From: Jatrophihabitans sp. GAS493
GTDB taxonomy: Bacteria > Actinomycetota > Actinomycetes > Mycobacteriales > Jatrophihabitantaceae
Reading direction: 5' to 3'
Length of the DNA: 64,000 nt
Assembly: GCF_900230215.1 (NCBI RefSeq)
Contig: NZ_LT907982.1
Span: 4,201,568-4,265,567 of the forward strand
The position numbers and the translations under genes were made by a program. Positions 4,183-15,973 of the stretch are shown one piece after another. The notes under the pieces were generated by a model. That model ran no database searches, had not been told where the DNA came from, and saw only the letters and a program-made list of their open reading frames with translations. The number at the start of each line of letters is the position of its first letter. The first letter of the stretch is position 1.

Positions 4183-5328
4183 TTAGCGGCCGCCGAATGC
4201 CTCGCGCACCTTGCCGAAGATGCCGGTATGCGCGCTGGCCACCGAGACCTCCTCGGCCCGCAGTGCGGCCAGTTCACGAAGCAGTCGCTCTTGTGCCTCG
4301 TCCAGCTTGGTCGGCGTCCGGACCTCGACGTGCACGTGCAGATCGCCCCGGACGCTGCTGCGCAGACGGGGAACGCCCTTGCCGCGCAGCGTCACCACGG
4401 CGCCGTTCTGGGTGCCTGGTCGCAGGTCGAGCTTCTCCTCACCGTCGAGGGTCTCCAGCGCGATGTCGGTCCCGAGCGCCGCGGCGGTCATCGGAACGGC
4501 GACGGTGCAGTGCAGGTCCGAACCCTCCCGGGTGAAGACGTCATGCTGAGCCTCGGTCACCTCGACGTAGAGGTCGCCGGCCGGACCGCCGCCGGGGCCG
4601 ACCTCACCCTGGCCGGAGAGCCGGATGCGCATTCCGTCCTCGATCCCGGCGGGGACGTCGATGGTGATGGTGCGACGGGCCCGGACCCGGCCCTCGGTGC
4701 CACAGGTCGGGCAGGGCGACGGGATCTGCTCACCGGTGCCCCCACAGGCCGAGCAGGCGCGCGTGGTCATCACCTGACCGAGGAAGGATCGCTGGACGGT
4801 CTGGATCTCACCCCGTCCGGCGCAGACGTCGCAGGTGCGGGGCGAGGTGCCGGCCGCGCAGCCGGTGCCCGTGCAGGTCTCGCAGACGACCGCCGTCTCG
4901 ACGGCGATCTCGCGTCGAACACCGAAGGCCGCCTCGGCCAGCGTCACCTCGATACGCAGCAGCGCATCAGCCCCGCCGCGAACCCGGCTACGCGGGCCGC
5001 GACCGGAGCCGCCACCGGCCGCGTTGCCGAAGAACGCCTCGAAGACGTCGCCGAAACCACCGAAACCACCGAAGGGGTTTCCCTGGCCGCCGCCGCCACC
5101 GGAGGAGAGCGGGTCGCCGCCGAGGTCGACCATGCGCCGCTTCTCGTCGTCGGAGAGCACCTCGTAGGCCGCGGTGACCGCCTTGAACTTCTCCTGCGCC
5201 GCCGGATCGGGGTTCACATCGGGGTGCAGCTCACGAGCCAGCTTGCGGTAAGCGCGTTTGATCTCCTCTGCGGTGGCGTCCTTGGAGACGCCGAGGATCG
5301 CGTAGTAGTCGCGCGGTGCTTGTGCCAC
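4183..5328 (-). CDS. dnaJ: Chaperone DnaJ (hrcA-linked paralogue)
   Basis: Type I Hsp40 co-chaperone for DnaK. It has an N-terminal J domain with HPD at residues 35-37, a Gly/Phe-rich linker ([19 protein letters not shown]), four CxxCxGxG-type zinc-binding repeats ([32 protein letters not shown]) and C-terminal substrate domains; 381 aa is normal. GTG start at 5328. This is the copy usually linked to hrcA, not the dnaK-grpE one. Here three envelope genes separate it from hrcA, and a CIRCE element 65 bp upstream of its start suggests direct HrcA control. Confidence 0.95.
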
Positions 5329-12488: not shown

Positions 12489-13199
12489 CTAGAGCGGTTC
12501 CACCGCGCCCGGCAGGGAGGTGCCGTCGATGACGTTCTCTCCCCCGCGCCGACGCCCACCGGGAACCCGCCCGGCCAGCCGCCCCAGCGGCTCGACCGAT
12601 TGTCCGATCGCCTTGGCCGACTCGTGCAGCTCGCCGACGCTGCTCTGCAGCGCGTCCAGCATCGGGTCCAGGTGGGAGAGCACGGCACCCAGCGAGGCGA
12701 CCTGCGCCTCGATGGCGCCCATCTGGCCGGCCAGCTCGGGCAGCGACTCCAGCGAGGTGACCAGGGACGAGAGCATCGGCAGCAGCTCGGCGAGCTGGTC
12801 GACCGGGCCGCCGGCGACGATCAGCTTCTCGATCCCGCCCCCTTGCGCGAAGAGCAGCTCCAAGGTTCCGCCGGGCTCGAAGAGCTTGTCCAATGGGCCG
12901 TCGTCGGCCAGCAGCCGGCTGATCGTGCCGTCGTTTCCCAGCGCGCGGCCGAGCGCGGTGTCGTCGGCGGTGAGCAGGGCCAGCTGCTCCAGACGGGCCA
13001 GAGGACCGGTCGGGCTGGCCAGCCGGGCGAGCTGCTCCAGGACGCCGCCGTCGGCCAGGATCACCTTCAGGCGTTCGCCGTATCCGCCCGGACGGCGCAG
13101 TGGGCCGTCGGGGACGATCAGGTCGCGAGTCGCGAAGAGCACATCGACCGAGGCCGAGGCGATCCGAAACGGCAAGGTGACCACCGAGAGAACGCCCAT
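12489..13199 (-). CDS. Unknown protein with central decapeptide repeats
   Basis: A 236-aa protein of no family I can name. It has a mildly hydrophobic N-terminus (VLSVVTLPFRIASASVDVLF). Residues 80-139 fall into six consecutive ten-residue units with the pattern [DG]-[TG]-x-[IL]-x-x-x-[LFI]-x-x: DTALGRALGN, DGTISRLLAD, DGPLDKLFEP, GGTLELLFAQ, GGGIEKLIVA, GGPVDQLAEL. A longer helical, probably coiled-coil segment (about 140-205) and a basic Gly/Arg tail follow. It lies 26 bp upstream of hemW on the same strand. A TACAGT box ends seven bases before the ATG, so the message may be leaderless. Confidence 0.75.
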   Translation of the reverse strand: MGVLSVVTLPFRIASASVDVLFATRDLIVPDGPLRRPGGYGERLKVILADGGVLEQLARLASPTGPLARLEQLALLTADDTALGRALGNDGTISRLLADDGPLDKLFEPGGTLELLFAQGGGIEKLIVAGGPVDQLAELLPMLSSLVTSLESLPELAGQMGAIEAQVASLGAVLSHLDPMLDALQSSVGELHESAKAIGQSVEPLGRLAGRVPGGRRRGGENVIDGTSLPGAVEPL

Positions 13200-13277: not shown

Positions 13278-13574
13278 CTACGGGCCGGCTGGTTCGATGC
13301 GCACCGCGAGCGGACGGTACCCCTCACTGCTCTGCTCCTGAGCCTTGCGCAGCACTCGCTCGATGCCGGCTCGATCCTGCTCGGGCAGTTCGGAGGCGAC
13401 CTGCCAGAGCAGGCGCACCGGCCCGTCCGGAAGCCAGCTCAGGTCTCGCAGCACATCGGCCAGCCCGTCGAGATTCGGGCTGGCCCACTCCGGGGCCTGT
13501 AAGGCCCGATAGATGGCGCCGATCGCCGCCCGCTTGTCACTGGCCGGCGCAACGACGCGTAAGTACCCGGTCAT
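13278..13574 (-). CDS. Barstar-like ribonuclease inhibitor
   Basis: A 98-aa cytoplasmic protein of the barstar family. The core PEWASPNLDGLADVLRDLSWL matches barstar's inhibitory helix and loop; the two acidic residues that plug the barnase active site (Asp35 and Asp39 in barstar) are both present in NLDGLAD. Its ATG overlaps the stop of the upstream ribonuclease as ATGA (13571-13574), so synthesis is coupled. The pairing with an RNase Sa-like enzyme strongly supports an immunity role: protection of the producer from its own RNase before export. It slightly exceeds barstar in length (89 aa). Confidence 0.9.
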   Translation of the reverse strand: MTGYLRVVAPASDKRAAIGAIYRALQAPEWASPNLDGLADVLRDLSWLPDGPVRLLWQVASELPEQDRAGIERVLRKAQEQSSEGYRPLAVRIEPAGP

Positions 13575-14017
13575 GAGGTGATGTCCACCGCAACGAAGCT
13601 CTCGTAGTGATCGTCGGTGTAGTAGTACTCCCCGCCGGCGCCGTGGATGATCCGGCGGGCTCCCCGATCACTCGAGCCGGGCGTCGGCACGGTGTATTCG
13701 TGGTAGTAGCCAGTCGGCTGCTCGGGGAGCAGCTTCTCGTTGTTGTTGAAGACGACGCCGTCCTGGCTGTACGGGAACGGGCCGTCGTGCTGGATGAGGG
13801 CGACGGTGGCGGCGGCCTCGCTCGGCAGCGAGGAGAGCGGCGCCGGCGAATGCTTCTCAGCCGCCGACTTCGACGTGGCGGCTGTGGCCGTCGGTGTCGC
13901 GGTCGTGGTCTTGGTCGTCGGCGAACTGTCGTGTCGCACCGCGCTGACGGTGTACCCGATAACCAGCGCGGCCAGCAGCAGGATCAGCGCAATCTGCGGC
14001 CGGCGGAGACGAGTCAC
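13571..14017 (-). CDS. Secreted guanyl-specific ribonuclease, RNase Sa/barnase family
   Basis: A 148-aa protein with an N-terminal membrane/signal segment (residues 8-26), a Thr/Ala/Ser-rich linker (about 30-58) and a C-terminal RNase Sa-like domain (LSSLPSEAAATVALIQHDG onward). The residues equivalent to the RNase Sa catalytic set Glu54, Arg65, Arg69 and His85 are present as Glu107, Arg118, Arg122 and His137. The disulfide cysteines of RNase Sa are absent. GTG start at 14017, eight bases after a TAGAGT box, so the mRNA may be leaderless. The next gene is the barstar-like inhibitor. Whether the enzyme is released or remains anchored cannot be told: there is no clear AxA cleavage site after the hydrophobic segment. 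Confidence 0.92.
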   Translation of the reverse strand: MTRLRRPQIALILLLAALVIGYTVSAVRHDSSPTTKTTTATPTATAATSKSAAEKHSPAPLSSLPSEAAATVALIQHDGPFPYSQDGVVFNNNEKLLPEQPTGYYHEYTVPTPGSSDRGARRIIHGAGGEYYYTDDHYESFVAVDITS

Positions 14018-14025
14018 ATCGGCTC

Positions 14026-14048
14026 ACTCTAACGGCCCCCGCTAAGGT
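14026..14048. promoter_or_regulatory. Divergent -10 boxes between RNase and oxidoreductase genes
   Basis: Only 38 bp separate the start codons at 14017 (minus) and 14056 (plus). TAGAGT (minus strand, 14026-14031) lies 8 bases before the GTG, and TAAGGT (plus strand, 14043-14048) lies 7 bases before the ATG. Both spacings suit leaderless transcripts. The promoters would overlap and could compete. Confidence 0.45.
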
Positions 14049-14055
14049 TCGACTC

Positions 14056-15055: not shown

Positions 15056-15595
15056 CTACGCCACTGCGGAGGCCAGCCCATCGACGACTTCCGCGCCGGG
15101 CAGGTCGGTGAGTGCCGCCGCCGGAAGCGCGATCTTGGAGCGGCGCAGACCGCTGCCGATCACCACGACCTCGCGTTCCAGTACTGCGGCGTCGATGAGG
15201 ATGGGCCATTCGGCAGGGAGGCCGATCGGGGTGATCCCGCCGAACTCCATCCCCGAGAGCGCCACCGCGTCGGCCATGGGCGCGAAGGAGGCCTTCCGGG
15301 CGTCTAGGCGACGACGAACGACGCCGTTCACGTCGGCCCGGGTTGTGGCCAGCACCACGCAGGCCGCGTAGCGGGTGCTCTCCCCGCGGCGGCCGGCGAT
15401 CACGACACAGTTCGCCGAGTCGGCCAGTTCGACCTGGTATTTCTCGCAGAACGCCGCGGTGTCTGCCAGGTCCGGATCGATGGGCGCCACCAGTACGTCG
15501 GCGCCCCGGCTCCAGCCGCTGACCGCGGCCGCCACTGGATCGGCGACCAACTCCGACGAGATGCCCTGCCAGCTGAGATTCCCGGGACCGACCAT
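15056..15595 (-). CDS. YbaK/EbsC-family aminoacyl-tRNA deacylase
   Basis: A 179-aa protein of the YbaK/ProX editing family, which hydrolyses mischarged tRNA in trans. The family motif GMEFGGITPIGLPAEWPILID is complete, as is the RRLDARKASFAPM region with the lysine used by the family. I take the ATG at 15595 (MVGPGNLSWQ). A longer open frame runs upstream to 15754 but crosses the divergent TraR/DksA-like gene and is not family-like. A TAGTGT box lies eight bases upstream, consistent with this start. The tRNA specificity cannot be read from the sequence. Confidence 0.88.
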   Translation of the reverse strand: MVGPGNLSWQGISSELVADPVAAAVSGWSRGADVLVAPIDPDLADTAAFCEKYQVELADSANCVVIAGRRGESTRYAACVVLATTRADVNGVVRRRLDARKASFAPMADAVALSGMEFGGITPIGLPAEWPILIDAAVLEREVVVIGSGLRRSKIALPAAALTDLPGAEVVDGLASAVA

Positions 15596-15603
15596 GGCTA
15601 CAG

Positions 15604-15613
15604 ACACTACTGT
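15604..15613. promoter_or_regulatory. Overlapping divergent -10 boxes (YbaK-like / DksA-like)
   Basis: TAGTGT on the minus strand (15604-15609) is 8 bases before the ATG at 15595. TACTGT on the plus strand (15608-15613) is 6 bases before the GTG at 15620. The two boxes share two bases, so the two genes should exclude each other's polymerase. Confidence 0.45.
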
Positions 15614-15619
15614 GAGAAC

Positions 15620-15973
15620 GTGATCGATTCGGAGAATGCCCAGCAAATGCTGGAGCAGCGTCGAGCCGAGACGATCGAGCGTATAGGGCGGCTGGCCGAC
15701 GAGATCGCCTCGCTGGTTGCCGCATCGGCCGACAGCAACGCCGACGACGAACACGATCCGGAGGGGTCGACGATCGCCTTCGAACGGGCACAGGCCCAGG
15801 CGTTCCTCGACGAGGCACGGGCGACGGTCGTTGACCTCGACGCCGCGTTGATCCGCCTGGCTGACGGGGACTACGGCCGCTGCACGAGCTGCGGCGCGAC
15901 GATCTCAGCGGCGCGGCTGGCCGCGCGGCCGGCGGCGCGAACCTGCATCGACTGCGCCACCGGGCGACGCTGA
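15620..15973 (+). CDS. TraR/DksA-type zinc-finger protein
   Basis: A 117-aa protein with an N-terminal coiled coil (about residues 5-80, acidic middle) and a C-terminal four-cysteine zinc finger, CTSCG - x13-16 - CIDC, as in DksA/TraR proteins. These act in the RNA polymerase secondary channel in proteobacteria; actinobacterial members are poorly studied and may be ppGpp-linked regulators. GTG start at 15620 after a TACTGT box, with no ribosome site, so probably leaderless. It ends 5 bp before the convergent lepA stop. Confidence 0.85.
   Translation: MIDSENAQQMLEQRRAETIERIGRLADEIASLVAASADSNADDEHDPEGSTIAFERAQAQAFLDEARATVVDLDAALIRLADGDYGRCTSCGATISAARLAARPAARTCIDCATGRR

What the first reader, a model, noticed from the sequence alone, without database searches (positions are those of the whole stretch)
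13278..14017. Complete RNase Sa-type toxin and barstar-type immunity pair with ATGA coupling
All four catalytic residues of RNase Sa are kept (Glu107, Arg118, Arg122, His137) and both key barstar acids are kept (NLDGLAD). The RNase has an N-terminal membrane segment without a clear cleavage site and lacks the disulfide cysteines of RNase Sa, so it may stay surface-bound. The toxin is translated first, immunity second, through an ATGA overlap. This suggests interbacterial competition or self-defence against extracellular RNA.
Basis: partly seen in the sequence, partly recalled or inferred. Interest (0 to 1): 0.6.

Follow-up and report, generated by a model that had tools for sequence, protein, structure and literature searches.

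The report
Actinobacterial RNase Sa–barstar gene pair
Two overlapping bacterial genes encode an exported RNA-cutting enzyme of the RNase Sa family and a barstar-type inhibitor that probably keeps it from killing the cell that makes it; this is a well-known kind of gene pair, here at an old, conserved chromosomal site where it evolves unusually fast.

Summary
The minus strand at 13571-14017 encodes a 148-aa RNase (Pfam PF00545, E 1.2e-24; 61-63% identity to RNase Sa/Sa3 structures). The overlapping ORF 13278-13574 encodes a 98-aa barstar (PF01337, E 1.3e-12; modelled fold matches barstar). They share an ATGA stop/start. All catalytic and both key barstar acids are present.

The pair sits between a divergent quinone oxidoreductase gene and hemW, near lepA. 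Relatives in the same family (which includes Jatrophihabitans) and Pseudonocardiaceae keep it there, so it is an inherited locus, not a mobile toxin cassette. It is nevertheless the fastest-evolving gene pair of its neighbourhood. The own genome has one RNase and one barstar, and no polymorphic toxin carrying this RNase domain.

Best reading: an exported, probably surface-tethered, guanyl-specific RNase whose cytoplasmic barstar neutralises enzyme not yet exported. Competition is possible but has no specific support. Such simple pairs are already described (PMC3482391).

One wider pattern: cysteine-free, mostly anchored RNases have a linked barstar (97/111), while disulfide-type RNases rarely do (4/41). 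This reflects only about four evolutionary changes, so it is a hypothesis.

The parts
13571..14017 (-). RNase Sa-type guanyl-specific ribonuclease, 148 aa; N-terminal hydrophobic helix (aa 6-27), Ser/Thr/Pro-rich stalk (aa 28-60), catalytic domain (aa 61-148; Glu107, Arg118, Arg122, His137; guanine-site Asn92 and Glu94)
13278..13574 (-). barstar-type RNase inhibitor, 98 aa, Asp36 and Asp40 kept; start codon overlaps the RNase stop (ATGA at 13574-13571)
14018..14055 (.). 38-bp divergent intergenic region; -10-like TAGAGT for the RNase operon (14031-14026, minus strand, 8 nt before GTG) and TAAGGT for the oxidoreductase (14043-14048, plus strand, 7 nt before ATG), both consistent with leaderless transcripts
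   Evidence: read from sequence; both motifs kept in the congeneric genome. No transcript data

Best explanation
An RNase-inhibitor operon of the barnase-barstar kind. The RNase is exported through the membrane by its N-terminal hydrophobic segment and cuts RNA after guanines outside the cell, probably while tethered to the membrane by the uncleaved segment and a flexible stalk. The cysteine-free enzyme could fold and act in the cytoplasm, so the barstar, translated from the same mRNA by stop/start coupling, binds the active site of any copy not yet exported. Shown: genes, families, predicted folds, catalytic and contact residues, coupling layout, conserved locus. Inferred: activity, binding, export, surface retention and the biological purpose (RNA scavenging, or degrading foreign or extracellular RNA at the cell surface).
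For: PF00545 and PF01337 matches; 61-63% identity to RNase Sa/Sa3 with all catalytic residues; barstar fold and Asp35/Asp39 equivalents; ATGA overlap in window and in G001; N-terminal helix; lipoprotein signals replace it in a family relative, L058, and in many Streptomyces homologues; catalytic domain and barstar helix 2 under purifying selection (dN/dS 0.24 and 0.15); conserved locus.
Against: 7 of 15 family genomes with the locus RNase have no linked barstar, and two (G003, G011) have no barstar match anywhere, so the inhibitor is not always needed. Barstar Trp38 is Ala here. The conserved possible -1 Ala leaves a cleaved, freely secreted enzyme open. No activity data.
Confidence: 0.8

Rival explanations
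1. Interbacterial toxin-immunity pair: the surface RNase is transferred to neighbours and kills cells lacking the matching barstar.
For: Toxin-before-immunity order; pair is fastest-evolving in its neighbourhood (dN 0.34 and 0.42 versus 0.007-0.04 for lepA, oxidoreductase, hemW, YbaK and the glycosyltransferase); same module is the tip of a 1502-aa Rhs-like frame with its own barstar in a family member, L070; Imm-Barstar is an established polymorphic-toxin immunity family (PMC3482391).
Against: Fixed housekeeping-site locus; no gene-wide dN/dS above 1; one RNase and one barstar in the genome; no repeats, WXG/LXG or other delivery domain; several relatives keep the RNase without any linked inhibitor.
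Confidence: 0.12
2. A variant of the best explanation on one point, the tether: freely secreted enzyme. The N-terminus is an ordinary Sec signal cleaved at VSA|VR and the RNase is released as an extracellular nutrient-scavenging enzyme, like RNase Sa; the barstar role is unchanged.
For: n/h/c layout and conserved possible -1 Ala in the family; RNase Sa itself is secreted (general knowledge).
Against: The stalk of about 33 residues would serve no obvious purpose in a free enzyme; disulfide-type free RNases in Streptomyces have almost none; homologues with linked barstars are often clear lipoproteins (42 of 42 lipobox-bearing cysteine-free RNases have a linked barstar by a crude motif rule).
Confidence: 0.35
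3. Intracellular toxin-antitoxin module acting on the cell's own RNA under stress, the N-terminal helix being only a membrane location signal.
For: Stop/start coupling and an inhibitor of a tight-binding family; divergent promoter region shared with a quinone oxidoreductase.
Against: Basic N-terminus followed by hydrophobic helix predicts the domain outside; homologues are lipoproteins or Sec-secreted; the order is toxin first; RNase kept without inhibitor in relatives.
Confidence: 0.05

Closest known systems
RNase Sa / Sa3 (Streptomyces aureofaciens; PDB 1sar, 1mgr, 1ay7)
   Same: Catalytic domain 61-63% identical over about 90 residues, same fold, same catalytic residues, guanine-site Asn39 and Glu41 kept
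   Different: No Cys7-Cys96 disulfide; long N-terminal hydrophobic segment plus stalk; linked barstar gene
Barnase-barstar (Bacillus amyloliquefaciens)
   Same: Exported cysteine-free RNase plus intracellular inhibitor with the two key Asp residues; barstar fold
   Different: RNase belongs to the Sa branch (barnase only E 0.07-0.9 by phmmer); genes overlap; barstar about 20% identical in the structural alignment, Trp38 replaced by Ala
Tox-Barnase / Imm-Barstar polymorphic toxins (PMC3482391)
   Same: Same toxin and immunity families, same toxin-immunity order
   Different: No polymorphic delivery region; conserved chromosomal site. The authors name simple pairs of this sort as a possible incipient toxin-immunity order without notable polymorphism
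Streptomyces lipoprotein RNase plus barstar pairs (for example L082, L086, L087 here)
   Same: Cysteine-free RNase domain, stalk, barstar gene directly downstream
   Different: Lipobox anchor instead of a longer hydrophobic helix; different genomic site

Membership tests
Microbial ribonuclease N1/T1 family (PF00545), RNase Sa branch | Profile match over the curated cut-off | tested here: met
   87.1 bits, cut-off 24
Microbial ribonuclease N1/T1 family (PF00545), RNase Sa branch | Catalytic Glu54, Arg65, Arg69, His85 and guanine-site Asn39, Glu41 | tested here: met
   Glu107, Arg118, Arg122, His137, Asn92, Glu94
Microbial ribonuclease N1/T1 family (PF00545), RNase Sa branch | Cys7-Cys96 disulfide of classical RNase Sa | tested here: not met
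   No cysteine in the protein. Most members sampled here also lack it, so it does not define the family; it only separates this protein from the classical disulfide subtype
Microbial ribonuclease N1/T1 family (PF00545), RNase Sa branch | Guanyl-specific RNase activity | not testable with these tools
   needs an assay
Barstar family (PF01337) | Profile match over cut-off and barstar fold | tested here: met
   48 bits, cut-off 23.4; Foldseek prob 1.00 to barstar
Barstar family (PF01337) | DxxxD acids (Asp35, Asp39) | tested here: met
   Asp36 and Asp40, invariant in 12 relatives
Barstar family (PF01337) | Binds and inhibits the cognate RNase | not testable with these tools
   needs binding or activity assay
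Polymorphic toxin system | Delivery or trafficking region with a variable C-terminal tip, or cassettes and orphan immunity genes | tested here: not met
   148-aa protein with signal/anchor only; one RNase and one barstar in the genome; conserved locus
Membrane-anchored surface enzyme | Uncleaved N-terminal membrane helix or lipobox | tested here: inconclusive
   Helix 6-27, no lipobox, possible VSA|VR cleavage site

The most novel reading that the evidence does not exclude
In Actinobacteria, RNases of this family come in two self-protection formats: free, disulfide-bonded enzymes that may be inactive in the reducing cytoplasm and mostly have no linked inhibitor, and cysteine-free, stalked, surface-tethered enzymes that are active before export and carry a coupled barstar. 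The window pair would be of the second format: a surface-displayed RNase shield. Disulfide and barstar would be alternative solutions to the same problem.
Probability: 0.25. Interest if true: 0.5.

Novelty: new member of a known kind. Interest (0 to 1): 0.3.

Why it matters
It places a simple RNase-barstar pair at an old, syntenic actinobacterial locus, showing that such pairs can be inherited chromosomal genes rather than mobile toxin cassettes, while still diverging far faster than their neighbours. If the two-format pattern is real, it offers a testable rule for when an exported RNase needs an inhibitor.

Tried and rejected
Disulfide versus linked barstar: raw counts look overwhelming (4/41 versus 97/111, Fisher p 2e-19), but the tree has only four changes of the disulfide trait and two independent pairs on supported branches, so the association cannot be tested as independent events. 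Positive selection: no gene-wide dN/dS above 1; the stalk value of 1.6 rests on an 18%-identical, uncertain alignment and is not used. Unlinked barstars as the missing partners in G018 and G020: the loci (L073, L074) carry a barstar but no RNase, so the link is unresolved. Anchor type by simple motif rules is crude and was not used to decide for the window protein. Paper searches for an anchored actinobacterial RNase with barstar, and for the RNase Sa inhibitors Sai14/Sai20 (recalled from memory), found nothing relevant in the open library. Tat export (RR before the helix) was considered; the helix is very hydrophobic and the full Tat motif is absent, so it is kept only as a minor possibility.

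Full report
What is there. On the minus strand, ORF 13571-14017 (GTG start, 148 aa) is followed by ORF 13278-13574 (ATG start, 98 aa); the stop of the first and start of the second share ATGA at 13574-13571. The first matches Pfam Ribonuclease (PF00545, E 1.2e-24) and the second Barstar (PF01337, E 1.3e-12), both above the curated cut-offs. By sequence the RNase is closest to RNase Sa and Sa3 (phmmer E about 1e-29), and only marginally like barnase; the barstar is weakly like Bacillus barstar by single sequence (E 0.07) but clearly so by profile and fold.

Residues and folds. Glu107, Arg118, Arg122 and His137 match the catalytic set of RNase Sa; Asn92 and Glu94 match the guanine site; Sa Gln38 is Asn here. 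The four catalytic residues are invariant in the 20 aligned relatives. The barstar keeps both Asp residues (Asp36, Asp40), invariant in 12 relatives; Tyr29 is Trp and Trp38 is Ala. AlphaFold models show a 22-residue N-terminal helix, a disordered stalk and an RNase domain (Foldseek to RNase Sa2 E 1.9e-11; to Sa 61% identity, rmsd about 1.4), and a barstar fold (Foldseek E 1.8e-4, prob 1.00).

Locus. The genome holds one RNase of this family and one barstar like this one. The pair lies between a divergently transcribed quinone oxidoreductase and, after a coiled-coil gene, hemW; lepA is close by. The gene order lepA / oxidoreductase / RNase / (barstar) / hemW recurs in relatives of the same family and order, and parts of it next to the RNase in named Pseudonocardiaceae such as Prauserella, Saccharothrix and Actinophytocola. 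One relative's contig (G002) has the same length as that of the MAG Jatrophihabitans sp. FW021_bin.43, so the family is that of Jatrophihabitans (inference). Of 24 same-family genomes, 15 have the locus RNase; 8 of these have a linked barstar and 7 do not. Five of the seven have a barstar elsewhere; G003 and G011 have none by Pfam. In G005 (L071) oxidoreductase and hemW are adjacent with no intact RNase between (only a weak N-terminal match).

Rate of change. Against the congeneric genome G001, lepA is 98.7% identical, the oxidoreductase 97.5% and hemW 95.1%, but the RNase is 61.5% and the barstar 49.5%. Nei-Gojobori dN is 0.34 and 0.42 for the pair versus 0.007-0.04 for lepA, oxidoreductase, hemW, YbaK and the glycosyltransferase (coil 0.14, DksA-like 0.13). 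The catalytic domain (dN/dS 0.24) and the barstar contact helix (0.15) are conserved; the stalk and the rest of the barstar are not. This is what either a drifting stalked enzyme or a mild arms race would give.

Export. The window protein starts MTRLRRPQ, then a hydrophobic core and YTVSA-VR. This can be a signal anchor or a cleavable signal; the family mostly keeps an Ala at the possible -1 position. One family relative (L058) and many Streptomyces homologues have a lipobox instead, which favours surface attachment as a common solution, but is not proof for this protein.

Wider comparison. Among 152 RNases from a similarity-ranked set and an evenly drawn set from the same class, cysteine-free ones have a barstar directly downstream in 97 of 111 and disulfide types (Sa-type Cys7/Cys96 or St-type Cys-3/Cys47) in 4 of 41. 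Some genomes hold one of each format (for example L092 and L154 in Prauserella muralis; L065 and L061 in G036). On the tree this is only about four changes, with too few independent pairs for a test, and some disulfide RNases (L119, L185, L197, L199) do have a barstar. It remains a hypothesis.

How it most likely works. An exported guanyl-specific RNase, probably held at the cell surface, with a coupled barstar that inactivates enzyme still in the cytoplasm. In Bacillus amyloliquefaciens this is the accepted role of barstar (PMC8837141); other Bacillus species secrete such RNases without a known barstar (same paper), much like the relatives here that lack it. Activity, binding and purpose are inferred. 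A role in competition is possible: barstar is an immunity family of polymorphic toxins (PMC3482391), and a family relative carries the module at the end of a 1502-aa Rhs-like frame (L070). At this locus no delivery region, no cassettes and no orphan immunity genes were found.

Known or new. PMC3482391 already describes widely distributed simple barnase-barstar pairs as a possible incipient toxin-immunity order without notable polymorphism. This is a new member of that kind. What is added is the conserved site, the contrast in evolutionary rate, and the two-format pattern.

Noticed in passing
window 14018-14055: Only 38 bp separate the divergent RNase and quinone oxidoreductase starts; each has a TANNNT -10-like hexamer 7-8 nt before its start codon (leaderless), and the two promoters would overlap so that both could hardly be used at once. 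Kept in G001, but most other relatives do not keep this close spacing.
   Followed up: partly
window 12489-13199 (-): 236-aa coiled-coil protein with short LADDG/LxxLFEPGG-like repeats and no Pfam family, between barstar and hemW; among the relatives' loci found by tblastn only in the congeneric genome.
   Followed up: no
L070 (G022:C439), RNase-like end at about 4572-4829: 1502-aa Rhs-like open frame ending in an RNase Sa-type domain with a barstar ORF overlapping its stop, in a member of the same family: a polymorphic-toxin use of the same module.
   Followed up: partly
L080, L089, L104, L115, L117, L150, L152: Amycolatopsis and Actinophytocola proteins with two RNase Sa-type domains in tandem, with four cysteines, and no linked barstar.
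   Followed up: no
L051, L053, L054, L055, L067 (barstar ORFs): Barstars of several family relatives start about 10 residues later and seem to lack the first beta strand of the barstar fold.
   Followed up: no
L048 (G003), L057 (G011): RNase with all catalytic residues and no cysteine, yet no barstar by Pfam anywhere in the genome; how these cells protect themselves is unexplained.
   Followed up: partly
window 15056-15754 (-) and 15620-15973 (+): The YbaK-type editing-domain ORF and a DksA-like zinc-finger ORF overlap head to head by about 135 bp as called; the YbaK start is probably further downstream.
   Followed up: no
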